Source: a virus
Direction: 5' to 3' (one strand)
IMG/VR virus record: IMGVR_UViG_3300047546_001733
Location: 1 to 64,000 of that record
Length of the DNA: 64,000 nt
In this document: in pieces, positions 6,052 to 21,701 of the stretch
Numbering within the stretch: position 1 is the first letter of the stretch
Layout: every line of letters begins with the position of its first letter
Made by a program: the position numbers and the translations under genes
Notes under the pieces: generated by a model
The model's database searches: none
The model's input: the letters and a program-made list of their open reading frames with translations, nothing else
Told to the model about the DNA's origin: nothing

Positions 6052-6184
6052 TGGTGGAGATGGGCGGAATTGAACCGCCGTCCAAAACTCGGTGCGTCAC
6101 TTAAGACGACGGACTTTCACGTCTTTCCATGGGCAGTTATCGCTACTCGTCCATGCCGAACCTTGTCGATACCATGTCATCCCC
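6052..6184 (-). ncRNA. ssrA: Minimal tmRNA (133 nt)
   Basis: tmRNA carries alanine to stalled ribosomes. The 5' end has GGGG.TGA..TGG.ATCGAC and the 3' end has GGACGGCGGTTCAATTCC followed by CATCTCC and ACCA, both close to bacterial tmRNA ends. The 7-bp acceptor stem keeps the G3-U70 pair and A73 that AlaRS reads. The D-like loop and a 9-bp P2 helix (AAGGTTCGG with CCGAGTTTT) follow. Inside P2 are only about 60 nt forming two hairpins (CATGG/CCATG and AAGACG/CGTCTT), where bacterial tmRNAs have about 270 nt with a tag frame and pseudoknots. No frame ends in a normal AA degron; the best-placed resume codon would give Ala-His-Gly-Lys-Thr. It has its own promoter 10 nt upstream. Confidence 0.85.
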
Positions 6185-6614: not shown

Positions 6615-6911
6615 CTATTCCTCTTCTGTTACTGTGATAAGATGGTCGGGGTATACTGTGCATTGTAAACAATCGCAACCGCAACAATCAGAGGTATCTA
6701 CCTCGATGCTCTTACCACGGCGATACCCATACATGAAGATAACGCACTCACGAGCCGAGCCGGTGAAATAGCCGTAATCAGAAAAGTAATCGTGCTCGTC
6801 GTTCTTTTTCATGATACGGTAGCGCACTTTTCCATCACCTGGGCTATACGTCTTGACCATCAATGTCGGATGTCCGTTCATCATCATCATCAATTCACGC
6901 TTGGCGTTCAT
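6615..6911 (-). CDS. Hypothetical Cys-rich phage protein, 98 aa
   Basis: Not recognised. A run of four Met near residues 8-11 and a compact cysteine cluster (CCGCDCLQC) around residues 76-84 that could bind zinc or Fe-S. First gene of its unit. Confidence 0.65.
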   Translation of the reverse strand: MNAKRELMMMMNGHPTLMVKTYSPGDGKVRYRIMKKNDEHDYFSDYGYFTGSARECVIFMYGYRRGKSIEVDTSDCCGCDCLQCTVYPDHLITVTEEE

Positions 6912-6941
6912 CGTGTTCCTCTTTCTCTCGATTACATATGT

Positions 6942-6986
6942 ATTATACCATGGATTTTTGAATTTTAAAATGAGAATTAGATGAGA
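6942..6986 (-). promoter_or_regulatory. Boxed promoter
   Basis: TCTCAT, TCTCAT, 22 nt, TGG-TATAAT; drives the 98- and 109-aa genes. Confidence 0.8.
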
Positions 6987-7018
6987 GGTTTAGGGGGTAG
7001 GGGGTCCCCCTGCCCCGC

Positions 7019-7258
7019 CTACTCCCACTCTAATGTGTTAGTGGCAGGGTTGAAGTACCGAATTGTTTCGCCCCACTCCATACGTGAAATAGGACGTTTC
7101 AACGGGCAAGAAATGCGATACCGACCATCTTGCATCTTACGGACACTAAAGTCACGCAAGCGTTGACCAAAGAATTTCATTGTTTTGCGGTCAAAGAAGT
7201 ACGGTTCATTCTCTGCTACAAGGTACTTAATGCGGTAGATTGTCATGCGTTGTGCCAT
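7019..7258 (-). CDS. Hypothetical phage protein, 79 aa
   Basis: Not recognised; basic, beta-rich. AAGGAG lies 6 nt upstream of the ATG at 7258; the ATG at 7273 precedes that site and is unlikely. Single-gene unit. Confidence 0.65.
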   Translation of the reverse strand: MAQRMTIYRIKYLVAENEPYFFDRKTMKFFGQRLRDFSVRKMQDGRYRISCPLKRPISRMEWGETIRYFNPATNTLEWE

Positions 7259-7286
7259 GTTGTTCTCCTTCACTTGATTACAATTT

Positions 7287-7331
7287 ATTATAGCATAGAT
7301 TTTTGAATTTTAAAATGAGAATTAGGTGAGA
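7287..7331 (-). promoter_or_regulatory. Boxed promoter
   Basis: TCTCAC, TCTCAT, 22 nt, TGC-TATAAT; drives the 79-aa gene. Confidence 0.8.
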
Positions 7332-7388
7332 GATTTAGGGGGTAGGGGGTCCCCCTGCCCCCACTGTAAAACTACAGCAGGGTCACGA

Positions 7389-7445
7389 CTAGTACGACCA
7401 AAAGATAACGACAAGCAATACAGTAAAGATAATAAATCCGCCCAT
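7389..7445 (-). CDS. 18-aa single-pass membrane micropeptide
   Basis: The peptide MGGFIIFTVLLVVIFWSY is one hydrophobic helix with aromatic ends. GAGGAG sits 6 nt upstream of its ATG, just downstream of the 64-aa gene stop. It is not related in sequence to the 27-aa family, but is of the same kind. Without the ribosome site it would not be callable, so moderate confidence. Confidence 0.6.
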   Translation of the reverse strand: MGGFIIFTVLLVVIFWSY

Positions 7446-7456
7446 GCTATTCTCCT

Positions 7457-7651
7457 CTAGAATGGTAATTCACCATCAGAATACGGCTCAAAGTCACCAC
7501 TCACATCCTCATCAAACTCTTCTCGTAGCCAATCCATCAATTCACCAGAAGACTGCTCAAACTCATCCGCTTGCTGTTCCATCAGGAAGTCATGCAATTC
7601 CTCGTCAGAGTATGATGCACGGAGCAGATGAAGATTAGCCAAGTTAGTCAT
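7457..7651 (-). CDS. Hypothetical acidic phage protein, 64 aa
   Basis: Not recognised; very acidic (Glu/Asp-rich throughout), as in DNA-mimic or inhibitor proteins, though no family is visible. AAGGAG upstream. Followed closely by the 18-aa peptide gene. Confidence 0.65.
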   Translation of the reverse strand: MTNLANLHLLRASYSDEELHDFLMEQQADEFEQSSGELMDWLREEFDEDVSGDFEPYSDGELPF

Positions 7652-7679
7652 AACATTCTCCTTCTCTTGATTACATCTT

Positions 7680-7724
7680 ATTATATCACGGATTCTTTAA
7701 TTTTAAAATGAGAATTAGATAAGA
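7680..7724 (-). promoter_or_regulatory. Boxed promoter
   Basis: TCTTAT, TCTCAT, 22 nt, TGA-TATAAT; drives the 64-aa and 18-aa genes. Confidence 0.75.
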
Positions 7725-7765
7725 GGCTTAGGGGGTAGGGGGGTCCCCCTGCCCCCAGAAAAAGT

Positions 7766-7960
7766 CTATGCTGTTCGTGGTACAGCACGCTTCTCTGGAA
7801 TTTCAATTTCAATTTCTGGATTGTTTTTCACGGTTTTCAAAATTTGTTTTACGATACGCCGTGCGGAACGCGTCTCGTGTGTAATAATATCCTCGCCGTG
7901 TTTTTTCTGTCGGTTGAGTCGATACCGACATTGAATACAGAAACACGTTACAATTTTCAT
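7766..7960 (-). CDS. Hypothetical basic phage protein, 64 aa
   Basis: Not recognised. Cys6, Cys8 and Cys11 near the N-terminus, then a basic helix: possibly a half zinc finger with nucleic acid binding. TAGGAG upstream; 9 nt after the 55-aa gene. Confidence 0.6.
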   Translation of the reverse strand: MKIVTCFCIQCRYRLNRQKKHGEDIITHETRSARRIVKQILKTVKNNPEIEIEIPEKRAVPRTA

Positions 7961-7969
7961 TTTTAACTC

Positions 7970-8137
7970 CTACCGTTTCACCAAGGGGCGAACACTGACA
8001 ATAGTAGCCCCCTGAGTAAGTAACCGTTTGAGGATGATGTTTGCGTTGTTATGGTCAAGTGCACGGTCGGGTGTTGGGTTTGTCGTTACCACATGATTCA
8101 GACCTAACCAAATAAACTTAATACGTGTCTTGTGCAT
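7970..8137 (-). CDS. Hypothetical basic phage protein, 55 aa
   Basis: Not recognised; short, basic, alpha/beta. AAGGAG upstream of the ATG and a boxed promoter behind it support a real gene. First of a two-gene unit. Confidence 0.65.
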   Translation of the reverse strand: MHKTRIKFIWLGLNHVVTTNPTPDRALDHNNANIILKRLLTQGATIVSVRPLVKR

Positions 8138-8167
8138 ATCGTGCGCTCCTTCTCTTGATTACACTTT

Positions 8168-8212
8168 ATTATAACATTGATTTTTCAATTTTAGTATTAA
8201 AATTAGATAAGA
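8168..8212 (-). promoter_or_regulatory. Boxed promoter
   Basis: TCTTAT, TTTAAT, 22 nt, TGT-TATAAT; drives the 55- and 64-aa genes. Confidence 0.75.
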
Positions 8213-8292
8213 AATCTGCATTTTTGCAAATATATAAGTGCTAGTAAATTGAACGAGGGGGCAGGGGGACCCCCTACCCCCTACCGTAGCGA

Positions 8293-8568
8293 TTACACAG
8301 CGCATCCGGTACAGAGTCGTTCTCCAAAACGTGCATATGCTTCAGGTGACAAGTCAGTGAGTTCACCACAACGGACACACTCACCATACAGTACCATTGT
8401 CGCACGCAGTTTCTGGTACTCCTCGCTCGCTTTTTTCTCCGCTTCCGCAGAGATTAATGGAGCGTGTAATCCTACACCACTGCGATAAGCATTTGCATCA
8501 AACCCATGAGGATTGCGAAAAATCCGCCGAGTAATTGACCGATTCATTCGCCATGTACGTTTACCCAT
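8293..8568 (-). CDS. Zinc-ribbon phage protein, 91 aa
   Basis: Basic N-terminus, a helical middle and a C-terminal CVRC...CTGC pair spaced like a zinc ribbon. Start at 8568 chosen for AAAGGA 6 nt upstream; the longer frame runs into the promoter. Function unknown. Confidence 0.65.
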   Translation of the reverse strand: MGKRTWRMNRSITRRIFRNPHGFDANAYRSGVGLHAPLISAEAEKKASEEYQKLRATMVLYGECVRCGELTDLSPEAYARFGERLCTGCAV

Positions 8569-8591
8569 AACACATCCTTTCCTACATATGT

Positions 8592-8636
8592 AGTATACCA
8601 CAGATTACCTCTTTTTTACATTAAAGTAACATGAGA
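8592..8636 (-). promoter_or_regulatory. Boxed promoter
   Basis: TCTCAT, TTTAAT, 22 nt, TGG-TATACT; drives the 91-aa gene. Confidence 0.75.
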
Positions 8637-8673
8637 GTTGTAGGGGGTAGGGGGTGACCCACGCATGAAGACA

Positions 8674-8862
8674 CTACTGAGTAAAGTCTTCTGGGCTTGG
8701 CTCGTGCACACTAAGAAAAGAAAAAGCCTCGTCCATATCATCAAAAAATTCTTCTAGTTCTAATCCACATGAAGCGCAACAATCCCACGCACTACCATCA
8801 CCAAATGTAATACCGCAGTGCAAACAAGTAAAATTAACGCCCGGTATTTCTACAGTGGTCAT
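8674..8862 (-). CDS. Zinc-ribbon phage protein, 62 aa
   Basis: Cys13/Cys16 and Cys28-Cys29/Cys32 make a rubredoxin-like knuckle pair; the C-terminal half is acidic. GGAG precedes the ATG. Downstream of the 27-aa peptide gene in the same unit. Confidence 0.65.
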   Translation of the reverse strand: MTTVEIPGVNFTCLHCGITFGDGSAWDCCASCGLELEEFFDDMDEAFSFLSVHEPSPEDFTQ

Positions 8863-8872
8863 ACTTCTCTCC

Positions 8873-8956
8873 CTACTTCCACATCAAATAAATAAAAATG
8901 ACAAATAACGGTTTAATCAGCAGTAGCAACACAATCGCAGTTGAAAGTAGTAGCAC
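8873..8956 (-). CDS. 27-aa membrane micropeptide, family copy 1
   Basis: GTG start with AAGGAG 5-6 nt upstream. One hydrophobic stretch is broken by Lys-Pro at residues 15-16, and the peptide ends YLMWK. Two paralogs of exactly the same length lie at 10826-10909 and 13409-13492. The N-terminal half reads IVLLLLIKP, identical in copy 3. Likely a bent membrane helix; role unknown. Confidence 0.75.
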   Translation of the reverse strand: MLLLSTAIVLLLLIKPLFVIFIYLMWK

Positions 8957-8983
8957 AGTGACTCCTTTACTTGATTACAATTT

Positions 8984-9028
8984 ATTATAACACAGGTTTA
9001 CTGGGGATTATATGAGAAATAGATAAGA
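8984..9028 (-). promoter_or_regulatory. Boxed promoter
   Basis: TCTTAT, TCTCAT, 22 nt, TGT-TATAAT; drives the 27-aa and 62-aa genes. Confidence 0.75.
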
Positions 9029-9121
9029 GGCAACTCGCAATAACGCAAATAACTAAGTGCGGGGTTTTTGGTCGATAAGGGGGTAGGGGGTCCCCCTACC
9101 CCCTAGTGTAAAGACTTTACA

Positions 9122-9313
9122 CTAGGCTTGCCGGAGGAGCTTGTGAAGTTCGTGTTCACAGCGGTGGATAGCGTCGATAGTCGGACCCGTTTCCCCACAG
9201 CACGGACACAGGAAAGGAAGGAGAAGGTCAAGCTTGCGGATTTCACGCTTTAGGGCGATGATGAGTAGGCGACGCTTCAGTGCCTTTTGTTGCTTGACGG
9301 TCTTCTTGTGCAT
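9122..9313 (-). CDS. Basic helical CPCC protein, 63 aa (copy 1)
   Basis: A strongly basic helix of about 30 residues, then CPCC, then a second helix. A diverged paralog lies at 12443-12622 with the same layout (KK-rich start, ALRKRL/ALKRRL, CPCC). Possibly a small nucleic acid-binding protein. GGGGG purine tract upstream of the ATG. Confidence 0.65.
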   Translation of the reverse strand: MHKKTVKQQKALKRRLLIIALKREIRKLDLLLPFLCPCCGETGPTIDAIHRCEHELHKLLRQA

Positions 9314-9344
9314 AGTAAACCCCCTTCATCTAACTTGATAATTT

Positions 9345-9373
9345 ATTGTATCACGAACGGAGCAGTTTGTCAA
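9345..9373 (-). promoter_or_regulatory. Sigma70 promoter
   Basis: TTGACA-17-TACAAT with extended TGA; drives the 63-aa gene. Confidence 0.8.
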
Positions 9374-9476
9374 TAGGCAATTTATTGTTTACAGCCCACC
9401 TAAAAGGTGTAAAGTGTTTCGCGGGGGAGGGGGACCCCCTACCCCCTACTGTAAAGTGTTTACAGCAGGGTTGTGC

Positions 9477-9644
9477 CTACAGATTGGGGATATGCTTGAT
9501 GTTGTCAACACAGCCCAACAACACGCCGATGATGAAGCGGAAAACCGCAAAGACACCACGCACAGCCACAAAACACAGTTTTAACGTGAGCATGATAGGG
9601 AACATGAGAACGTCGGCTACGGCACGGGTTGCGTTACTCTGCAT
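9477..9644 (-). CDS. 55-aa membrane protein (family copy 1)
   Basis: A hydrophobic protein with regularly spaced Arg/Lys, ending in an I-P element. AAGGAG upstream of ATG. Shares ATR..A.VLMFP and RF..GV.L.C with the 56-aa protein at 13067-13237, so a duplicated membrane-protein family. The rightward open frame across this stretch is a shadow. Confidence 0.75.
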   Translation of the reverse strand: MQSNATRAVADVLMFPIMLTLKLCFVAVRGVFAVFRFIIGVLLGCVDNIKHIPNL

Positions 9645-9677
9645 TTGAGCACTCCTTGATTAACTTGATTACATCCT

Positions 9678-9706
9678 ATTTTAGCACGGTTATAAAGGAA
9701 TTGCAA
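9678..9706 (-). promoter_or_regulatory. Sigma70-like promoter
   Basis: TTGCAA-17-TAAAAT with TGC; TCTCAT and TTTCAT boxes are also present further upstream (to about 9734), so it may be a hybrid. Confidence 0.6.
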
Positions 9707-9808
9707 TAGACTTTTATGAAAATTAGATGAGAGAAAATATTTAACACGGTGTAAACAGTTTAGGGGGTAGGGGGTGCCCCACTGTAAACACTTTACAGTG
9801 GGAGTCGA

Positions 9809-10015
9809 TTACGGGTTGAAGCGGATGCGCTTGTAGCCCGTGATGGTGAAGCCCTTCGACAACAAATCCCGCAACAGGAATTGCCCACGAGCGTCTGCCT
9901 CTTCCCGAGTCTTGAATGCGGCAGTCGTGATGCTGGTGCGCTCGCCGTTGAAAACAAACGACACTTTCACACCAAACATACCTACACCGTGAACACGATT
10001 CGCATATACCATCAT
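9809..10015 (-). CDS. Hypothetical phage protein, 68 aa
   Basis: Not recognised; beta-beta-alpha pattern resembling small nucleic acid-binding or inhibitor folds. GGAGAG upstream of the ATG-ATG start. Single-gene unit. Confidence 0.65.
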   Translation of the reverse strand: MMVYANRVHGVGMFGVKVSFVFNGERTSITTAAFKTREEADARGQFLLRDLLSKGFTITGYKRIRFNP

Positions 10016-10046
10016 AAAAACTCTCCTTAACTTCTCTTACATACGT

Positions 10047-10091
10047 ATTATACCACGGATAAGGGAAAACTTTTATGAGAACTAGATGAGA
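10047..10091 (-). promoter_or_regulatory. Boxed promoter
   Basis: TCTCAT, TCTCAT, 22 nt, TGG-TATAAT; drives the 68-aa gene. Confidence 0.8.
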
Positions 10092-10160
10092 AATAATGCT
10101 TTACACCGTGTAAACAATTTAGGGGGGAGGGGGGACCCCATACCCCCTAGTGTAAAGTGT

Positions 10161-10313
10161 TTACTCCATCTTGGTAGCACAGTCAGGACAGAACAAGTAG
10201 GTTGCCTCACCTTGATGCTCGGGGTCATCTGGCAACAAATCAACCGCTACTAACTCATCAAGGTCGAAGAGTTTCTCACAGTAATGGCAAGGAGTCAAAG
10301 AATCAGCAGTCAT
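10161..10313 (-). CDS. Zinc-ribbon phage protein, 50 aa
   Basis: Cys9/Cys12 and Cys42/Cys45 form two CxxC knuckles around an acidic middle. AAGGA upstream of the ATG, consensus promoter behind it. Function unknown. Confidence 0.7.
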   Translation of the reverse strand: MTADSLTPCHYCEKLFDLDELVAVDLLPDDPEHQGEATYLFCPDCATKME

Positions 10314-10344
10314 TGGAAAATCCTTCTATCTAACTTGATAATTC

Positions 10345-10373
10345 ATTGTATCATGAATTGGTACTGTTGTCAA
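10345..10373 (-). promoter_or_regulatory. Sigma70 promoter
   Basis: TTGACA-17-TACAAT with TGA; drives the 50-aa gene. Confidence 0.8.
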
Positions 10374-10453
10374 GGGGTTTTTATGAGAATTACCTGATAT
10401 TTATCTGATAAATAATTATTTACAATCCACCTAAAAGGTGTAAAGTGTTTACA

Positions 10454-10648
10454 CTAGCGGAGTTTCATGCGGGAAGCGGACTCCATGCACAGCGCACAAC
10501 CGCACAAAATTTTGCTGACCAGCTTATGACGGCGAGCCTTGCGTTGTAACGCCACAAACTCCTCCCGAGTCATTTGCTCAAAGCCGTGCATGGTCAAAAA
10601 CACCTTAAAGATGGTGTCACGCACAAGACGCATTTTTAATTCTTCCAC
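10454..10648 (-). CDS. Basic Cys-containing phage protein, 64 aa
   Basis: Helical, basic, with CGCALC near the C-terminus; possibly a distant relative of the CPCC pair. GTG start with AAGGAG 6 nt upstream. Confidence 0.6.
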   Translation of the reverse strand: MEELKMRLVRDTIFKVFLTMHGFEQMTREEFVALQRKARRHKLVSKILCGCALCMESASRMKLR

Positions 10649-10685
10649 AAAAAACTCCTTACCACCAAAAATTCAATTACATCCT

Positions 10686-10714
10686 ATTTTAGCACGTAAT
10701 CGGTGACTTGTCAA
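10686..10714 (-). promoter_or_regulatory. Sigma70 promoter
   Basis: TTGACA-17-TAAAAT with TGC; TCTCAT boxes also lie upstream. Confidence 0.75.
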
Positions 10715-10825
10715 TAGACTTTTATGAGAATTAGATGAGAAAAAATATTTGACAAGGTGTAAACAATTTAGGGGGTAGGGGGACCCCCTACCCCCTACTG
10801 TAAAGACTTTACAGCGGGGTGAGGA

Positions 10826-10909
10826 TTAGTCACGCCATAGTAAGCAGATTACAAGCACAGCAAGCGGTTTTGAGATGATTACTAAGACCAAAAGCAGTTC
10901 GAGGCTCAT
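10826..10909 (-). CDS. 27-aa membrane micropeptide, family copy 2
   Basis: AAGGAG before the ATG, which follows the 76-aa gene stop. Same architecture as the other copies: hydrophobic arm, Lys-Pro at residues 14-15, second hydrophobic arm, ending LLWRD in place of YLMWK. Confidence 0.7.
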   Translation of the reverse strand: MSLELLLVLVIISKPLAVLVICLLWRD

Positions 10910-10919
10910 TCGGAACTCC

Positions 10920-11150
10920 TTACAGCTCAACGAACTTGAATCCGCCCTCGTCAATCATTACCGCTTGCGAGTGAGTTGTGCCCCCGTCGGTTTCGAACTT
11001 GATGTCGAACACGCTACAGGTGGGGTCAGCGTGAAAAGAACCCCGCAATTCGTATTCAAGGTCTTCACGAAAACCGCCCACGTCGTCAATCTCACCTTGC
11101 AGGATGAACTCGAACTTTCCCTCACGGGTCACGGTTGCCTTCATGTACAT
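10920..11150 (-). CDS. 76-aa phage protein, paralog A
   Basis: Not recognised, but one of three related small acidic beta-rich proteins (with 11309-11557 and 12652-12903). Shared layout: K-A-V/T-V-T strand, G-G-K/E-F strand, a central helix, D-V/I-+-F strand. AAAGGG upstream of the ATG. Followed by a 27-aa peptide gene. Confidence 0.65.
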   Translation of the reverse strand: MYMKATVTREGKFEFILQGEIDDVGGFREDLEYELRGSFHADPTCSVFDIKFETDGGTTHSQAVMIDEGGFKFVEL

Positions 11151-11179
11151 AATGCGCCCTTTCTCTCGGCTACACAGTA

Positions 11180-11224
11180 ATTATACCACAGATTTTTCAA
11201 TTTTAAAATGAGAATTACATGAGA
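11180..11224 (-). promoter_or_regulatory. Boxed promoter
   Basis: TCTCAT, TCTCAT, 22 nt, TGG-TATAAT; drives the 76-aa and 27-aa genes. Confidence 0.8.
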
Positions 11225-11308
11225 AATAATTCTTTACAAGGTGTAAACAATTTAGGGGGTAGGGGGTCCCCCTACCCCCTAGTGTAAAGGGTTTACACTA
11301 GGAGACGG

Positions 11309-11557
11309 TTAGCGATGGAGAAACTCGACGTCGCCCCTACCTGCACCATGTACCACCGCTTTAAACTCGCTGACAAACGTACCAGTGGCGTCGGTGAACT
11401 CGAAGCGGACATCGACCAGACCGACCTCGCCACCTGTGGCAAAGGAAATCTCGTCCGCCAACGTTTGGGAGAACTCGGCGACATCTCCCTTAAACTCCTC
11501 GCAACGAACTTCAACGACAAATTTCCCGCCCTTGGTGACTACCGCACGCATACGCAT
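11309..11557 (-). CDS. 82-aa phage protein, paralog B
   Basis: Second member of the small beta-rich family (RAVVTKGGKF aligns with KATVTREGKF of paralog A). AAAGGAG 8 nt upstream. A long rightward open frame over the same bases is a shadow of codon periodicity. Confidence 0.65.
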   Translation of the reverse strand: MRMRAVVTKGGKFVVEVRCEEFKGDVAEFSQTLADEISFATGGEVGLVDVRFEFTDATGTFVSEFKAVVHGAGRGDVEFLHR

Positions 11558-11570
11558 AATCTGGACTCCT

Positions 11571-11822
11571 TTATTTGATGTTTGCTTTTACGGAAAACTT
11601 CATTGAATCCATAGTTACTGAGATGACATGGTTTACATTTTTAATCACCAAATCAGTGTCGTTCACGTCATAGGCTGGTAACGCCATACCACCCAAGTAA
11701 ATCGGCTCGTCGGTCATACGCACTAAGAACAGCGTCGTATACGTAGTATTTTCTTTTGTTTCTAGCGTTACTCGCAAATCGTGAAAACTTGCCGAAAATG
11801 GAAATTGATACTGTACTCGCAT
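11571..11822 (-). CDS. Hypothetical phage protein, 83 aa
   Basis: Not recognised; beta-rich throughout, perhaps an immunoglobulin- or OB-like small domain. GGGAG upstream. First gene of a unit with paralog B. Confidence 0.65.
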   Translation of the reverse strand: MRVQYQFPFSASFHDLRVTLETKENTTYTTLFLVRMTDEPIYLGGMALPAYDVNDTDLVIKNVNHVISVTMDSMKFSVKANIK

Positions 11823-11850
11823 AACACTCCCTTTCTGTCGGTTACATCTT

Positions 11851-11895
11851 ATTATACCATGCTTTTTCGATTTTGAATATGAGAATTAGATAAGA
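11851..11895 (-). promoter_or_regulatory. Boxed promoter
   Basis: TCTTAT, TCTCAT, 22 nt, TGG-TATAAT; drives the 83- and 82-aa genes. Confidence 0.8.
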
Positions 11896-11991
11896 GATAA
11901 TTCTTTACACAGTGTAAAGAGTTTTGCGGGGCGGGGGCACCCCCTACCCCCTAGTGTAAAGGGTTTACACCAGAAGATGAAACTCCTTACA

Positions 11992-12303
11992 CTATTCGCA
12001 CTCTGGTGTTGATTCCTCGATTGGCTCGAATTGCTCGATGGCTCTCATCATAGCACGCACCTGCTTGCGAATGATGCGCTTTGCGTGTTTCATAGCCTTT
12101 GAATGGTCGTGAATGTCGAACGGACGAACACGCTCACCAGCAAAGAAAATTGAAGAATCCTCCTCGATGATACCGTCCTTCTGGACGATGTCCACACGAA
12201 CCATGACCTTCTTTTCTTCGGGAATCTCGATGGCGACAACAATCGCCTCTTTCCAGCCACCAGCGAAGACCACAACGTGAGCGACGTGTTGCTCTTTTGG
12301 CAT
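11992..12303 (-). CDS. Hypothetical phage protein, 103 aa
   Basis: Not recognised; N-terminal beta sheet, then a basic helix (around residues 68-88) and an acidic tail. GGAGG upstream of the ATG. Confidence 0.65.
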   Translation of the reverse strand: MPKEQHVAHVVVFAGGWKEAIVVAIEIPEEKKVMVRVDIVQKDGIIEEDSSIFFAGERVRPFDIHDHSKAMKHAKRIIRKQVRAMMRAIEQFEPIEESTPECE

Positions 12304-12332
12304 ACCAGCCTCCTTACTAACCTTACACTAGA

Positions 12333-12377
12333 ATTATACCACACTTTAGATTAAAATAGTATGAAAATTAGATGAGA
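12333..12377 (-). promoter_or_regulatory. Boxed promoter
   Basis: TCTCAT, TTTCAT, 22 nt, TGG-TATAAT; drives the 103-aa gene. Confidence 0.8.
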
Positions 12378-12442
12378 AATAATTGTTTACACAGTGTAAA
12401 GCGTGGGGGTAGGGGGACCCCCTACCCCCTACTGTAAACCAT

Positions 12443-12622
12443 TTACAGTGAGAAGAAAAACTCACGACGCAGTTCCATCAAAAATTGATGCGCCTCGTCT
12501 GCTTCACAGCATGGGCAAGCCATCGAGAGCATAAACTCCGCCCGCTTAATTGCACGCTTTAACTGAATCAAGCGTAAACGCTTCCGCAGTGCGAGCATTT
12601 GCTTTTGTGACTTTTTCCGCAT
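12443..12622 (-). CDS. Basic helical CPCC protein, 59 aa (copy 2)
   Basis: GGAGG upstream of the ATG. Paralog of the 63-aa protein at 9122-9313: Lys/Arg-rich first 28 residues, CPCC at about 36-39, short acidic then mixed helix. Second gene of its unit. Confidence 0.7.
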   Translation of the reverse strand: MRKKSQKQMLALRKRLRLIQLKRAIKRAEFMLSMACPCCEADEAHQFLMELRREFFFSL

Positions 12623-12651
12623 TTTAGCCTCCGTTAAATAATGGACACGTT

Positions 12652-12903
12652 TTACACCTGCACAATGTGCGCTTTAGATGTAACCGTATCACGAACAGCC
12701 ACGGAATGAACAGTACCGCCATGAGTAGACGTAACGAACACGTCCAAAGAATCCACCAACGGGAACATCGAGAACAGGAAGGAAGCCTCATCACGGACTA
12801 CTTCCATCAAGAAAACAAACTCGCCGAACGTGCACACATCTTGACCAAACTCGGCAAATGTCTTCTCACCACCAGCAAGGCGAACGGTCACAAAATCAGT
12901 CAT
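12652..12903 (-). CDS. 83-aa phage protein, paralog C
   Basis: Third member of the small beta-rich family; GGT-H-S-AV near the end matches paralog A. The ATG at 12903 has AAAGGG upstream; the longer frame would cross the promoter. Confidence 0.65.
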   Translation of the reverse strand: MTDFVTVRLAGGEKTFAEFGQDVCTFGEFVFLMEVVRDEASFLFSMFPLVDSLDVFVTSTHGGTVHSVAVRDTVTSKAHIVQV

Positions 12904-12933
12904 GGCAAGCCCTTTCTCTTGTCTTACAGGTAA

Positions 12934-12978
12934 ATTATACCACAAATGAGCAACGTTGAACATGAGAATTAGATGAGA
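12934..12978 (-). promoter_or_regulatory. Boxed promoter
   Basis: TCTCAT, TCTCAT, 22 nt, TGG-TATAAT; drives paralog C and the CPCC copy 2. Confidence 0.8.
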
Positions 12979-13066
12979 AACAATGTTTTACACGGTGTAA
13001 AGAATTTAGGGGGTAGGGGGTGCCCCACGCCCCCAGTGTAAAGACTTTACACTAGGGGTTTTGCGG

Positions 13067-13237
13067 TTACATCGACGGAATCACCTTGAGCAATTCCAAA
13101 CAGCTCAACACGACACCGACCAAGAAACGCAAGAGCGCACCGACCAAACGGACACACACGACCAAAACCTTACACACAAGCAAGAACGGAAACATGAGAA
13201 CGGCGGCGACCATGCGAGTTGCGTCAGACTTGTACAT
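13067..13237 (-). CDS. 56-aa membrane protein (family copy 2)
   Basis: Starts at an ATG with AGAGGAGAG upstream. Aligns end to end with the 55-aa protein at 9477-9644 (DATRMVAAVLMFP against NATRAVADVLMFP). Two hydrophobic arms separated by Arg residues. The rightward frames here are shadows. Confidence 0.75.
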   Translation of the reverse strand: MYKSDATRMVAAVLMFPFLLVCKVLVVCVRLVGALLRFLVGVVLSCLELLKVIPSM

Positions 13238-13269
13238 GAAGTTATCTCTCCTCTTCTCGGTTACAGTTA

Positions 13270-13314
13270 ATTATACCACGCTTTTTCGATTTTGAATATT
13301 AGAATTAGATGAGA
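13270..13314 (-). promoter_or_regulatory. Boxed promoter
   Basis: TCTCAT, TCTAAT, 22 nt, TGG-TATAAT; drives the 56-aa gene. Confidence 0.75.
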
Positions 13315-13408
13315 GGTAATTATTTACACAGTGTAAAGAGTTCGGCGGGGCACCCCCTACCCCCTACTGTAAAGTGTTTACAGTAGATGAGCGTGAATTA
13401 CGCCCGCC

Positions 13409-13492
13409 TTACTTCCACATCAAATACACAATAACAGCAATAATGGGCTTGATGAGCAACAGCAGAACAATGCCAAAGGTTAGACCGAGCAT
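13409..13492 (-). CDS. 27-aa membrane micropeptide, family copy 3
   Basis: AGAGGTGCGT precedes the ATG. Shares IVLLLLIKP and the YLMWK end with copy 1 although the third-codon positions differ, which points to selection on the peptide. Sole gene of its unit. Confidence 0.75.
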   Translation of the reverse strand: MLGLTFGIVLLLLIKPIIAVIVYLMWK

Positions 13493-13520
13493 ACGCACCT
13501 CTTCTATTCGGTTACAGTTA

Positions 13521-13565
13521 ATTATACCACGGCTTTTGAATTTTGAATATTAGAGAAAGATGATA
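13521..13565 (-). promoter_or_regulatory. Boxed promoter
   Basis: TATCAT, TCTAAT, 22 nt, TGG-TATAAT; drives 27-aa copy 3. Confidence 0.65.
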
Positions 13566-13640
13566 GGTATCTGTTGAGCAATTCTTTACACGGTGTAAAG
13601 CGTTTAGGGGGTAGGGGGTCCCCCTGCCCCAAGTGTAAAT

Positions 13641-13668
13641 AATAAAACCCGCCGATTACTCGGCGAGT
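13641..13668 (-). terminator. Terminator of tRNA-like pair 1
   Basis: CTCGCCGAG/CGGCGGG stem with TAAT loop, then TTTTATT on the minus strand. Confidence 0.75.
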
Positions 13669-13680
13669 GTAAATAGTTTG

Positions 13681-13779
13681 GGTCCCTACTCTGGATTCGA
13701 ACCAGCGTTCGCTCCGAGTGAGTATCTAGAATCAATCGGATTTACCGCACCCACGGAATTTATTAAGCGATGTTAGGGC
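13681..13779 (-). ncRNA. tRNA-like RNA 1 (new family)
   Basis: About 99 nt. A normal T-arm (CTGG-TTCGAAT-CCAG) and a short terminal stem (CCCTA/TAGGG) frame a second helix (TCGCT/AGCGA) that replaces the D-arm. Inside that helix are 52 nt starting TAA, with a CCG-TGGGTG-CGG hairpin and a TCCGA/TCGGA hairpin whose loop holds GATTCTAGA. It does not fold as a standard tRNA. Shares this layout with three other RNAs in 13783-14729. Confidence 0.7.
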
Positions 13780-13782
13780 AAG

Positions 13783-13885
13783 TGTTGGTAAGAGGTGGAT
13801 TCGAACCACCATGACACTCTAATGAAGGGTCTAGAATCCATTAGATTTACCGCACCTACGGAATGGATTAAGTGTCGTTCAAACC
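13783..13885 (-). ncRNA. tRNA-like RNA 2 (new family)
   Basis: About 103 nt. Perfect T-arm (GGTGG/CCACC), second helix GACACT/AGTGTC, inner hairpin CTAATG/CATTAG carrying the GATTCTAGA loop. The terminal stem is the weakest of the four (GGTTTGA with TCTTACC, two mismatches). Encodes ACCA at its end. First of the pair, four bases before RNA 1. Confidence 0.7.
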
Positions 13886-13934
13886 GTAATTTAGGTTAGT
13901 TTTGGGAAAGACCATCACTCAACCTTATGTACTA

Positions 13935-13963
13935 AGTATACCACTGGCTAGATTTCTTGTCAA
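13935..13963 (-). promoter_or_regulatory. Sigma70 promoter of tRNA-like pair 1
   Basis: TTGACA-17-TATACT with TGG. The initiation region is nearly identical to that of pair 2 (shared minus-strand TAGTACATAAGGTT). Confidence 0.85.
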
Positions 13964-14182
13964 GGGGCAATTTGAATTTCAAAATGAGAATTAGATGAGA
14001 ATTGTTTTTTTCGTATCTGCATCTTTGCGGGCAGATGTGGTAGGGGGTAGGGGGTGCCCCTACCTGTACTGTATTTATTTTGATGTAATTTTTGTTTTTA
14101 AATTGAAATTTCAATTTTATTTTTTTTTCTTTTATATTTAAAACAAAGTTTGCACTCAGATAAAAACTGAGAATAAAAGTAT

Positions 14183-14320
14183 TGTGGTCTCTCTGAAGTT
14201 AACCCCCCTCAGAGACTCAGGGACCAAGTTAAGAGAGTGACTCTTCTGAGAGGGGTATTTCACCCTCACGTCGGTACGAAGTAGTGAGTCCGTGGACTAC
14301 TTACCGCTCTCTTAACTTGA
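14183..14320 (-). ncRNA. Structured RNA with 13-bp closing helix
   Basis: The predicted start (about 14320) coincides with one side of a perfect 13-bp helix (CAAGTTAAGAGAG with its complement at 14225-14237). It encloses a long nested hairpin (CGGT/ACCG outside AAGTAGT/ACTACTT) and a GGG-TGAAATA-CCC hairpin. Right after it, a second stem-loop (TCTCTGA/TCAGAGA inside GGTC/GACC) with TTTT near 14170 may terminate it. No open frame with a ribosome site. Could be a regulatory RNA or a packaging-type RNA; family unknown. Confidence 0.65.
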
Positions 14321-14326
14321 TAATTC

Positions 14327-14355
14327 ATTGTATCATGAATGAACAACCTTGTCAA
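14327..14355 (-). promoter_or_regulatory. Sigma70 promoter of structured RNA
   Basis: TTGACA-17-TACAAT with TGA. Confidence 0.8.
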
Positions 14356-14480
14356 GAGAGTTTTATGAGAATTAGATGAGTTTCTCTCATATGTTGGTGG
14401 GGCGGCGTGAGAATGACTCTATAACCGAGTGTAAAGAGTTTTAGGGGCGGGGGGACCCCCTACCCCCACACCAGTGTAAA

Positions 14481-14509
14481 TAATAAACCCGCCGGATTTA
14501 CCGACGGGT
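14481..14509 (-). terminator. Terminator of tRNA-like pair 2
   Basis: CCCGTCGG/CCGGCGGG stem, TAAA loop, then TTTATT on the minus strand; same place and form as the terminator of pair 1. Confidence 0.7.
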
Positions 14510-14519
14510 GTAAATAGTT

Positions 14520-14625
14520 TGGTCTCTCCCAACAGGATTCGAACCTGCTTGCTGGTCTTACAGAGTATCTAGAATCCATAAGATTTACCGTACCCACGGA
14601 TTTGGTTTAACCAGCATTAGGAGGA
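14520..14625 (-). ncRNA. tRNA-like RNA 3 (new family)
   Basis: About 106 nt. T-arm GCAGG/CCTGT, second helix TGCTGGT/ACCAGCA (7 bp), inner hairpin CTTAT/GTAAG with GGATTCTAGA, terminal stem CTCCTA/TGGGAG and an encoded ACCA. Helix sequences differ from RNAs 1, 2 and 4 while pairing is kept. Confidence 0.7.
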
Positions 14626-14630
14626 TGGTC

Positions 14631-14729
14631 TGGTCTGAGGTGGAATCGAACCACCGTTCCGGTCTTGTCAGAGTCTAGAATCCACAAGAGGTACCGCACC
14701 TACGGTATGTTTTAACCGGAGTTCAGTCC
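14631..14729 (-). ncRNA. tRNA-like RNA 4 (new family)
   Basis: About 99 nt and the best-formed copy: terminal stem GGACTGA/TCAGACC (one mismatch), 2-nt linker, second helix TCCGGT/ACCGGA, hairpins TACCG/CGGTA and CTTGT/ACAAG with GGATTCTAGA in the loop, T-arm GGTGG/CCACC with TTCGATT loop. Encoded ACCA overlaps the end of the stem. Confidence 0.75.
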
Positions 14730-14778
14730 ACAAATTAGGCAGTTAGCGGGGAAACCGTTCACTTAACCTTATGTACTA

Positions 14779-14807
14779 AGTATACCACGGTTAATGTGCT
14801 GTGTCAA
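14779..14807 (-). promoter_or_regulatory. Sigma70 promoter of tRNA-like pair 2
   Basis: TTGACA-17-TATACT with TGG. Confidence 0.85.
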
Positions 14808-15072
14808 GTGACTATTATGAGAATTACATGAGAATGGCGCGCGTTACATACAGTAATTATCCGCCCGCCACATACCTAAGTGCATTACCATAGGGGGTAG
14901 GGGGTACCCTCTTTATTCTTCTACCGCTTCCAGATGCTGTATATTGGCAAATATATATTAAGCCATTGTAATAAGTGCCTTTTTTTAGGGGGTAGGGGGT
15001 GTCCGCTGGTTGCGAACCGCGCTTCGTTATGTCGAGTGGGGTTTATGGCTTCCTAATGCGGTAAAATGCTTA

Positions 15073-17687: not shown

Positions 17688-18842
17688 TTACTGACCGTCA
17701 ATGCCCTTCAACAACTGTGTCTGATACCATACGGTCTTCGTGTCACCAGTTGCACCTGCGGGAATAAATGTACTTCCATCCTTGTACATCAACGGACCAG
17801 TCCACAAATTCAAGCCGTCCTTAAGTGCGGTAAGGAACATTCCAAGTGACTTTGTTTGTGTTAGACCAGCACCCATCATAAATCCAATACCGCTCGTGTC
17901 ATGATTGTTCAAGTCAGCGAAGTTTGGACCAAACAAGACAAAACCGGGCTTCCATGTTCCTGCGATGTGTGCTTGTACCATCTTCTTGTATTCGGGGTAC
18001 CAGTTAAAGTATGGTACGCCAATACACGGGGCGGGACCCTTATCACACGCTCCCTTAAAGTCATAGGGAATACTCTTGACTGCCTTACCGCTTGCGTGTG
18101 CCTTTGCAACTTCTGTGACAACTTCGGGTGTGTCAATACCTGACATAATCACATCATACCCTTGCGTAATGTAATCGTTAATCACCAACGTTGGGTCAAG
18201 AGTTACACCCGGGATGTTGAACCAGAATCCAATCCACTTGACCGAGAACCGAAGTAGTGCTGGGTCTTGTGCTTTGTAGGATGTCCAACAGTATTGTGCA
18301 CCCAAATAAGCGGCATTTACCAAACGCCGAGTTTCGTCGTTAATCAGGGGACCAACATAAGCAATCTTCCCTGTGTTCGACTCCAGAGCCGCCGCACACC
18401 CGGCAATCATCTTCCCATACTCCATTTGCCCCATCATGTTACCAAGATTTGCCGGTGCCTTACCGGTCATTACGTCGTCACCTGATGCGTGCAAGAAAGA
18501 TACGTTGGGGTAATTAACTGCCGCCTCTCGAATGCTGTCTTTAAAGTCATCCGAATTAGCGATAATCATGGTCGCCCCTTGGGAAATAAGTTCGCTGGCT
18601 ACCTTTTCTGCGCTGACGTTGGGTCGGTCGGCTGGATTCACCTTGTCAACGTAAATAAATGTTACGTTCTCTTCCGCTTCGACTTGCTTCATCGCCTCAT
18701 AATGGGCTTGGCTCCAGCCACCGTCGTTCTTTGGACCAACCAGAATCATACCAATTGTAGGTTTCTGCGCTTCTACTGGCGCACCACATGATGCAAGCAT
18801 AAGCACTGCAAATGCAAGCAACGCAAATTTCCAAACTGACAT
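17688..18842 (-). CDS. BMP-family substrate-binding lipoprotein, 384 aa
   Basis: Lipoprotein signal with lipobox LASC (Cys19), so exported and lipid-anchored. The body matches the BMP/PnrA group of ABC-transporter binding proteins: IGMILVGPKNDGGWSQAH start, a TMIIANSDDFKDSI region,  YPNVSFLHASG, and GYDVIMSGIDTP in the second lobe. Known members bind nucleosides or related nutrients. No permease or ATPase gene is in the window, so it would have to feed a host transporter, or serve as a surface decoy or receptor blocker. It has its own consensus promoter and a hairpin in its leader (TAGCAC/GTGCTA). Full length for the family, so it looks intact. Confidence 0.8.
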   Translation of the reverse strand: MSVWKFALLAFAVLMLASCGAPVEAQKPTIGMILVGPKNDGGWSQAHYEAMKQVEAEENVTFIYVDKVNPADRPNVSAEKVASELISQGATMIIANSDDFKDSIREAAVNYPNVSFLHASGDDVMTGKAPANLGNMMGQMEYGKMIAGCAAALESNTGKIAYVGPLINDETRRLVNAAYLGAQYCWTSYKAQDPALLRFSVKWIGFWFNIPGVTLDPTLVINDYITQGYDVIMSGIDTPEVVTEVAKAHASGKAVKSIPYDFKGACDKGPAPCIGVPYFNWYPEYKKMVQAHIAGTWKPGFVLFGPNFADLNNHDTSGIGFMMGAGLTQTKSLGMFLTALKDGLNLWTGPLMYKDGSTFIPAGATGDTKTVWYQTQLLKGIDGQ

Positions 18843-20038: not shown

Positions 20039-20152
20039 TTACTCAAAACTTTCAAGTACGTAGAGTTCTTTTAGTAGGTCTACAATATCTAAAAAATAAT
20101 CGGCAACCACAAGAATAGCCGTGATGAATACTATTTTTTCATACCATTTCAT
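20039..20152 (-). CDS. Small membrane protein, 37 aa
   Basis: GGAGG four bases before the ATG. One hydrophobic helix (about residues 7-24) then a Leu/Glu amphipathic end. It lies between the lysis-operon terminator and the methyltransferase gene. Could be a lysis accessory; not recognised. Confidence 0.65.
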   Translation of the reverse strand: MKWYEKIVFITAILVVADYFLDIVDLLKELYVLESFE

Positions 20153-20201: not shown

Positions 20202-20624
20202 TTAACCGTCAGCTTTTGTAATATCTACACTGATACTGAGTTGTTCCGGCTTTCGCTCATCAATAATTTGCTGAGCCAGTACGGGGTCAACCATAGCCTC
20301 AATACTCGATGCGACCGAATCCTTTGATTTGTTCACAAGCGCATCTTGTGGGAATAGCCCAGCGTGTAGGTTCAGTGTGCGGAAAAATGTGTGATATACT
20401 GTCTGCGAGATAGTGAGAATAGTGGTAAAATTGGTTAGGGTTGCCTGAGGCGTTACCTCGTTATCAATTACCGCCATAAGAGTCGCCACAATAATCGAAA
20501 GAGCGGCGGCAAGACCGAATTTGTAATACGGCTTCCACGACACTCGCTGTAGGTACAGCACCGCAAAGGGAATAATTGTACCCGTAACAAACTGTAAAAT
20601 AACAGTCAATGAATCATTTTCCAT
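20202..20624 (-). CDS. Holin-like membrane protein, 140 aa
   Basis: Two membrane helices (about residues 6-26 and 36-54) and a long soluble C-terminal part. Position next to the amidase and a TM/coiled-coil protein suggests a holin, which would form the lethal membrane hole at lysis. No specific holin family is recognisable. Confidence 0.6.
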   Translation of the reverse strand: MENDSLTVILQFVTGTIIPFAVLYLQRVSWKPYYKFGLAAALSIIVATLMAVIDNEVTPQATLTNFTTILTISQTVYHTFFRTLNLHAGLFPQDALVNKSKDSVASSIEAMVDPVLAQQIIDERKPEQLSISVDITKADG

Positions 20625-20997
20625 GAGATTCTCCTCCTAGTTTACGTAATAGTTCTGCCATACGTCGTTCAAGTATGTCCATATCAGTAAGTCGTTGCTC
20701 CAAATACGCAAGGCGATTTTTTGTGCTATCTCGTTCTTTTTGTAATTCGCTTATGTCAAGAATAAGTTTATCTCGTTCTTTTCGCAGTTCTTGGTTTTCT
20801 GCGTGTAGTGTTTTATTTTCCTGCTCAAGAGCAGAAATACGTGCTGAATGATGTTGTACAAGTTGAAGTAAGTCGGTGCGTAAATCACTCTCTGCATCTT
20901 GATTTTTACTTCGTAAGGCGACAATAGAGCCGATAATACCAGCAACAGCACCGGCAATTGCAGAAATAATACTCGTGGAATCTACTTGATTTGACAT
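20614..20997 (-). CDS. Membrane-anchored coiled-coil protein, 127 aa
   Basis: One N-terminal helix rich in Ala/Gly/Ile (residues 9-28), then a coiled coil of about 80 residues. Lies between amidase and holin-like genes with short overlaps. Probably a lysis accessory, such as a second holin component or spanin-like protein. Confidence 0.6.
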   Translation of the reverse strand: MSNQVDSTSIISAIAGAVAGIIGSIVALRSKNQDAESDLRTDLLQLVQHHSARISALEQENKTLHAENQELRKERDKLILDISELQKERDSTKNRLAYLEQRLTDMDILERRMAELLRKLGGESHGK

Positions 20998-21701
20998 TAC
21001 GACCTCGCTTTAAGAAGTGGTTCAAAAATATATCCTAGACCAACAGCGTAACGCCAGCGACTCACTCCATTAATTGTCTCCCCAAAAAATATGTCGGCAT
21101 CAAAAGACATTACAGGAGTACCTGCCTCGAGGGTAGTAACTACGGCGGAGTCTCTTGTGACTGATTTACGAATATTTGCACGAGTCGTTGTCGTGTATAT
21201 CTTATAGGGCGTTAAACGCATCTTCTTCCAGTGGGCAAACCCAGCGTCAGTAACGCCACTTGGGTCTATTTTTCTCCCCGCTGGGGCGGCAATACTTCGG
21301 TGCATCTGTGGATTTAATCCCGGGTAGGTGCGTGCGAGTCTCGTTATTTCTTCCCACATTAACCCATTCCAAAATCCCTCTAAAGGAGAGAAATGGACTT
21401 CAACACCAATTGCAGACGGGTTTGCTGTATCTGGAGTAAATGTTTTCCCAGTGTGCCATGCTACGTATTCCGCAGGATTCAGTAATTGAAACGTGTCACC
21501 CGTTTTTGATACAAGGTAGTGAGCACTTACATCTTTTGACATAATCAGAAAGTTTCGTTCTGCCCCGATGCTACTATTAGCTCTTCCATTTGTTGTATGA
21601 ATAACAAGTGTCTTGTATTCAATATTTTTGTTTCGAAGTGAGTACCCCTCATTCGCTCTGAGGTAATTGTTCTTCTGGTACTCCTCCTTGATTATTATCA
21701 T
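20997..21701 (-). CDS. Endolysin: N-acetylmuramoyl-L-alanine amidase, 234 aa
   Basis: Amidase_2-type enzyme that cuts the peptide from peptidoglycan. Zinc ligands visible: His35 in VIHTTNG, His134 in MHRSIAAP and Asp146 in RKIDPS. The last 65 or so residues look like an SH3b wall-binding domain. The ATG at 21701 has GGAGG 9 nt upstream, so the gene really overlaps the portal gene by 53 nt. Confidence 0.85.
   Translation of the reverse strand: MIIIKEEYQKNNYLRANEGYSLRNKNIEYKTLVIHTTNGRANSSIGAERNFLIMSKDVSAHYLVSKTGDTFQLLNPAEYVAWHTGKTFTPDTANPSAIGVEVHFSPLEGFWNGLMWEEITRLARTYPGLNPQMHRSIAAPAGRKIDPSGVTDAGFAHWKKMRLTPYKIYTTTTRANIRKSVTRDSAVVTTLEAGTPVMSFDADIFFGETINGVSRWRYAVGLGYIFEPLLKARS

What the first reader, a model, noticed from the sequence alone, without database searches (positions are those of the whole stretch)
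8873..13492. A family of 27-residue membrane micropeptides
Three genes (8873-8956, 10826-10909, 13409-13492), each exactly 27 codons, all with a ribosome site, encode hydrophobic-KP-hydrophobic-LMWK/LLWRD peptides. Copies 1 and 3 share IVLLLLIKP and YLMWK with different synonymous codons. An 18-residue membrane peptide (7389-7445) and a 37-residue one (20039-20152) are of similar kind. Candidates for superinfection exclusion or inhibition of host membrane enzymes.
Basis: partly seen in the sequence, partly recalled or inferred. Interest (0 to 1): 0.72.

Follow-up and report, generated by a model that had tools for sequence, protein, structure and literature searches.

The report
Phage family of 27-residue membrane peptides
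An uncultured phage carries three tiny genes, each for a 27-residue peptide that should sit in the host's membrane; two are clear duplicates under selection at the protein level and the third is a probable relative, so they are very likely real, but they match no known family and their target is unknown.

Summary
Three minus-strand ORFs (8873-8956, 10826-10909, 13409-13492) of exactly 27 codons encode single hydrophobic helices in one register, K-P-x6-[YC]-L-[ML]-W-[KR]. Copies 1 and 3 are paralogues: of 17 codon pairs with the same meaning, 11 use different codons (pS 0.73, pN 0.23). Copy 2 is a weaker but probable member. Shuffles of the region average 0.004 such RBS-preceded hydrophobic ORFs; four are observed. 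All lie in the phage's left arm, a string of one- or two-gene cassettes with an extended -10 promoter (TGnTATAAT) 32-46 nt upstream and, mostly, a GGGGGTAGGGGG/CCCCCTACCCCC hairpin behind. The three genes are unchanged in one near-identical phage, absent from a 72.8 kb relative that shares the arm, and without match in cultured phages, GTDB genomes, Pfam, PHROGs, PADLOC or PDB. The 18-residue peptide is a separate gene with an 18-residue counterpart in that relative. The 37-residue peptide is an unrelated, conserved gene beside the lysis genes. Best reading: lineage-specific, single-pass host-takeover peptides that bind a host inner-membrane protein. Membrane-disrupting toxin and superinfection exclusion remain open. 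New member of a known kind.

The parts
8873..8956 (-). micropeptide copy 1, 27 aa (GTG start), first gene of a two-gene cassette
   Evidence: RBS AAGGAG, 5 nt; TGTTATAAT 36 nt before the start
10826..10909 (-). micropeptide copy 2, 27 aa (ATG), second gene of a cassette behind 10920-11150
   Evidence: RBS AAGGAG 6 nt; hairpin 30 nt after the stop
13409..13492 (-). micropeptide copy 3, 27 aa (ATG), alone in its cassette
   Evidence: RBS GAGG; TGGTATAAT 37 nt before the start, hairpin 44 nt after the stop
8674..8862 (-). 62-aa protein with paired Cys motifs (CLHC, CASC), co-transcribed behind copy 1 (inferred)
   Evidence: 10-nt gap to copy 1 and no promoter motif of its own
10920..11150 (-). 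76-aa protein in front of copy 2; its homologue L065 3437-3670 has no micropeptide behind it
   Evidence: TGGTATAAT 38 nt upstream
7389..7445 (-). separate 18-aa membrane peptide (MGGFIIFTVLLVVIFWSY), second gene behind 7457-7651
   Evidence: an 18-aa hydrophobic peptide in a similar place in L065 5881-5937
13067..13237 (-). 56-aa one-helix membrane protein, paralogue of 9477-9644, neighbour of copy 3
   Evidence: homologues L012 18165-18335 and L065 3845-4015
9477..9644 (-). 55-aa one-helix membrane protein, paralogue of 13067-13237
   Evidence: AlphaFold2 model is a single helix 3-50, mean pLDDT 84
13331..13388 (.). GC-rich hairpin region behind copy 3, one of at least 18 hairpin copies that separate the cassettes in 6800-15000
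   Evidence: (families D3, D4)

Best explanation
The three ORFs are real genes of a small paralogous family of single-pass inner-membrane peptides. Each cassette of this arm starts with a host-type sigma-70 extended -10 promoter, and a GC-rich hairpin lies behind most of them, so the peptides are probably made early and separately from the late genes (inferred). Each peptide should form one helix with a mid-helix Lys-Pro and a C-terminal Trp-basic anchor, N-out/C-in by the positive-inside rule (inferred). The conserved Lys-Pro and Trp, and substitutions that in the second half of the helix are I/V/L/F/A swaps, suggest helix-to-helix binding to a partner. The likeliest job is to bind and modulate a host inner-membrane protein during takeover of the cell. 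Duplication of other membrane and zinc-type genes in the same arm suggests cassette duplication followed by divergence. Shown: the layout of the genes, the paralogy of copies 1 and 3, protein-level selection. Inferred: expression, topology, partner, function.
For: pS 0.73 v pN 0.23 between copies 1 and 3 (Fisher p 1.4e-4). Four such ORFs against 0.004 expected. RBS in front of each. Promoter motif 36-38 nt before the first gene of each of their three cassettes. Mid-helix K-P and C-terminal W in one register in all three. Other paralogous pairs in the same arm: 9477/13067 and 9122/12443. Low amphipathicity (hydrophobic moment 0.17-0.30) argues for an embedded helix over a surface-active peptide. 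Precedent: phiNM1 Gp11, an early small membrane protein that binds MurG and DivIC (PMC11237401).
Against: No transcription or translation data. No relative beyond one near-identical phage, so selection is measured only between two paralogues. No target or partner identified; host unknown. The mid-helix Lys could equally mark a pore-forming or toxic peptide. Copy 2 is only weakly similar.
Confidence: 0.42

Rival explanations
1. They are membrane-disrupting peptides that work like type I toxins (DinQ 27 aa, TisB 29 aa, IbsC 19 aa): they insert, depolarise the membrane and slow or kill the host, with no specific partner.
For: Same size range and hydrophobicity, and a basic C terminus as described for several type I toxins (PMC8309996); duplication is a known trait of such genes (ZorO was sought by that criterion, same review). 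The 18-aa peptide is IbsC-like in size.
Against: No promoter-like site better than 8 of 12 on the opposite strand at the three genes, so no sign of an antisense antitoxin; low amphipathicity; strong RBS on two of three; no family match.
Confidence: 0.22
2. They exclude superinfecting phages by sitting in the inner membrane and blocking DNA entry.
Against: Much shorter than the exclusion proteins known to me (recalled, not tested); no integrase seen among the genes I annotated (not all were), so a lysogenic setting is not shown; no PADLOC match.
Confidence: 0.15
3. They act in lysis as holin, antiholin or pinholin.
For: Small membrane peptides; holins can be small.
Against: They lie more than 7 kb from the endolysin (20997-21701) in differently organised cassettes. 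A protein with hydrophobic stretches of holin-like layout (20202-20624), with a similar protein near the portal gene in G018 (L079 1052-1465), and the 37-aa peptide lie close to the endolysin instead.
Confidence: 0.06
4. The ORFs are not translated; the similarity of copies 1 and 3 is left over from duplicated cassettes.
For: The cassettes are repeat-rich, with non-coding repeats of 60-124 nt.
Against: Changes are concentrated at synonymous sites; RBS and promoter in place; lengths preserved; no equivalents on the other strand of the region or in shuffles.
Confidence: 0.06

Closest known systems
Type I toxins of the DinQ / TisB / Ibs kind
   Same: 19-29 residues, one hydrophobic helix, basic C-terminal end in many; often duplicated
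   Different: no antisense RNA signal, low amphipathicity, mid-helix Lys-Pro, no family match; toxicity untested
Phage early small membrane proteins, e.g. phiNM1 Gp11 (PMC11237401)
   Same: phage-encoded small membrane protein (early expression is inferred here)
   Different: sequence relation not tested; Gp11 has known targets (MurG, DivIC)
Small regulatory membrane subunits of bacteria (KdpF, CydX, MgtR; recalled)
   Same: about 30 residues, one helix that binds a larger membrane protein
   Different: no Pfam match; the likeness is one of size and design only

Membership tests
One 27-aa micropeptide family (within the window) | copies share residues beyond composition | tested here: met
   copies 1/3: 16 identities v mean 3.9; copy 2 v copy 1 fraction 0.003, v copy 3 0.15, so copy 2 is probable only
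One 27-aa micropeptide family (within the window) | selection at protein level | tested here: met
   copies 1/3 pS 0.73, pN 0.23; not shown for copy 2
Type I toxin-antitoxin | small hydrophobic single-helix peptide | tested here: met
   size and hydropathy
Type I toxin-antitoxin | antisense RNA antitoxin on the opposite strand | tested here: inconclusive
   best opposite-strand promoter-like sites only 8 of 12; consensus scan only
Type I toxin-antitoxin | toxicity on expression | not testable with these tools
   needs expression
Holin | gene beside the endolysin | tested here: not met
   endolysin at 20997-21701, over 7 kb away; other candidates adjacent
Superinfection exclusion protein | blocks DNA entry of related phages | not testable with these tools
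   no PADLOC match, which is no proof
Known Pfam/PHROGs families | profile match above cut-off | tested here: not met
   best E 0.23 (Pfam) and 0.3 (PHROGs), Pfam scores far below the cut-offs

The most novel reading that the evidence does not exclude
A phage lineage has evolved and multiplied its own 27-residue membrane effector that recognises a host membrane protein by an intramembrane Lys-Pro, with each copy tuned to a different partner.
Probability: 0.2. Interest if true: 0.55.

Novelty: new member of a known kind. Interest (0 to 1): 0.34.

Why it matters
Very small phage membrane proteins are routinely missed by gene callers. Here paralogy gives protein-level evidence for 27-codon genes without any expression data, and the cassette layout offers a way to find others in related phages. 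If a host target were found, it would show how short a membrane inhibitor can be.

Tried and rejected
Profile scan of IMG/VR with the three peptides: only the near-identical phage. Scan of GTDB genomes: 95 pattern hits, none confirmed. tblastn against cultured phages with copy 1 and with the 56-aa protein: none. Profile search of five left-arm or core relatives and of G018: none, with G001 as positive control at E 4e-14 or better. The CPCC-protein profile brought in loci that match over 16-23 residues only, set aside as chance zinc-motif hits. G001 identity was considered as evidence of selection and rejected as uninformative. The G017 29-aa peptide MILILIVVAVLLVRAALFSAVAQALFDEV (L056 11566-11655) sits behind a promoter of the same layout but is not similar enough to call homologous. 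PDB profile search: nothing.

Full report
What was checked. The window is the first 64 kb of a 72,156-base virus record, a tailed phage with terminase (intein-containing), portal, class II ribonucleotide reductase, DnaB-like helicase, family A DNA polymerase and RecA. No cultured phage shares its DNA over 1-24000 or its portal protein. The host is unknown.

The observation. The three ORFs are exactly as described, all on the minus strand, 27 codons each. Copy 1 starts with GTG. RBS strength differs: AAGGAG for copies 1 and 2, GAGG for copy 3. Copies 1 and 3 share 16 of 26 residues after the start, where shuffles of the same residues never exceed 12 in 200,000 trials. The nucleotide changes between them fall mainly on synonymous sites (pS 0.73, pN 0.23; by codon position 11/4/15, Fisher p 1.4e-4). 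That is the strongest evidence that these are translated genes. Copy 2 shares the register K-P-x6-C-L-L-W-R, with 10 identities to copy 1 (fraction 0.003 of shuffles) but only 7 to copy 3 (0.15), so its membership is probable, not proven. Dinucleotide shuffles of 6800-13640 give on average 0.004 RBS-preceded hydrophobic ORFs of this size against four observed.

The surroundings. 6800-14000 is a run of cassettes on the minus strand. Of 22 genes examined there, 16 have an extended -10 box (TGnTATAAT or a near variant) 32-46 nt before the start; the six without one each follow another gene within 10-30 nt. A GGGGGTAGGGGG/CCCCCTACCCCC hairpin lies behind most cassettes. Copy 3 is alone in its cassette. 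Copy 1 is followed after 10 nt by a 62-aa protein with paired cysteines. Copy 2 follows a 76-aa protein. The arm holds other paralogous pairs: 55/56-aa one-helix membrane proteins (9477, 13067; AlphaFold2 single helix, mean pLDDT 84) and CPCC proteins (9122, 12443).

Relatives. G001 (about 96% identical) keeps all three genes unchanged. This is weak support, because flanking DNA is nearly as conserved. G001 lacks most of window 11298-12962, so cassettes come and go. G004, G009, G017 and G018 share parts of the arm. G018 (72.8 kb) has the 56-aa protein, a homologue of the 76-aa protein in front of copy 2 and many more, but no 27-aa peptide: the place behind the 76-aa protein is empty and a profile search of the whole record finds nothing while G001 gives three strong hits. 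The 27-aa family is therefore lineage-restricted as far as these records show. The 18-aa peptide (7389) has an 18-aa hydrophobic counterpart in a similar place in G018, although the two share only 6 residues. The 37-aa peptide (20039) is a separate conserved gene: pS 0.66, pN 0.16 against G004.

How it may work. By composition each peptide is one membrane helix with a Lys-Pro in the middle and a Trp-basic end, which suggests N-out/C-in (inferred). Low hydrophobic moment speaks for a buried helix. I think binding to a host inner-membrane protein during takeover is most likely (0.42), then a type I toxin-like membrane effect (0.22), superinfection exclusion (0.15), lysis (0.06) or no translation (0.06). 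None of these was tested by experiment.

Known or new. No profile, structure or sequence library gave a match outside the one near-identical phage. Tiny phage membrane proteins as such are a known kind; this is a new family of that kind.

A separate finding deserves its own look: a 133-nt tmRNA-like RNA in the same arm, conserved in four relatives. [quoted passage not shown] coli (PMC11915505).

Noticed in passing
window 6052-6184 (-); L027 6690-6822, L028 10028-10160, L056 11267-11398, L065 9025-9157: A 133-nt tmRNA-like RNA (Rfam tmRNA, 71.9 bits, E 1.3e-26) with both tRNA-like halves and an encoded CCA but only about 60 nt in between; 132-133 nt in four relatives; ARAGORN misses it. No shared tag frame was seen by eye; an AGTAGYGATAACTGCC block in the middle is conserved. 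Similar in kind to the tag-less tmRNA of phage DS6A (PMC11915505).
   Followed up: partly
window 13692-13879 and 14535-14723 (-): Four tRNA-like repeats (family D13) with a good T arm and a conserved TCTAGA-containing block where an anticodon arm would be; not found by ARAGORN or as tRNA by Rfam.
   Followed up: partly
window 6800-15000: At least 18 copies of a near-palindromic GGGGGTAGGGGGnCCCCCTACCCCC hairpin separate the cassettes; an exact scan of IMG/VR finds it only in three contigs, all of this phage group.
   Followed up: partly
window 20039-20152 (-): 37-aa membrane peptide with a terminator-like hairpin and T run ending just before its RBS; conserved in L012 (pN 0.16, pS 0.66).
   Followed up: partly
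window 17688-18842 (-): Gene for a PnrA/Bmp-like (ABC transporter substrate-binding) protein near the structural genes of a phage; homologous DNA in several relatives.
   Followed up: no
window 23067-25676 (-): Terminase with an intein splicing domain (Pfam 2.5e-7, below its cut-off).
   Followed up: no
L012 5107-5358: Group I intron (Rfam 66.2 bits) in a relative.
   Followed up: no
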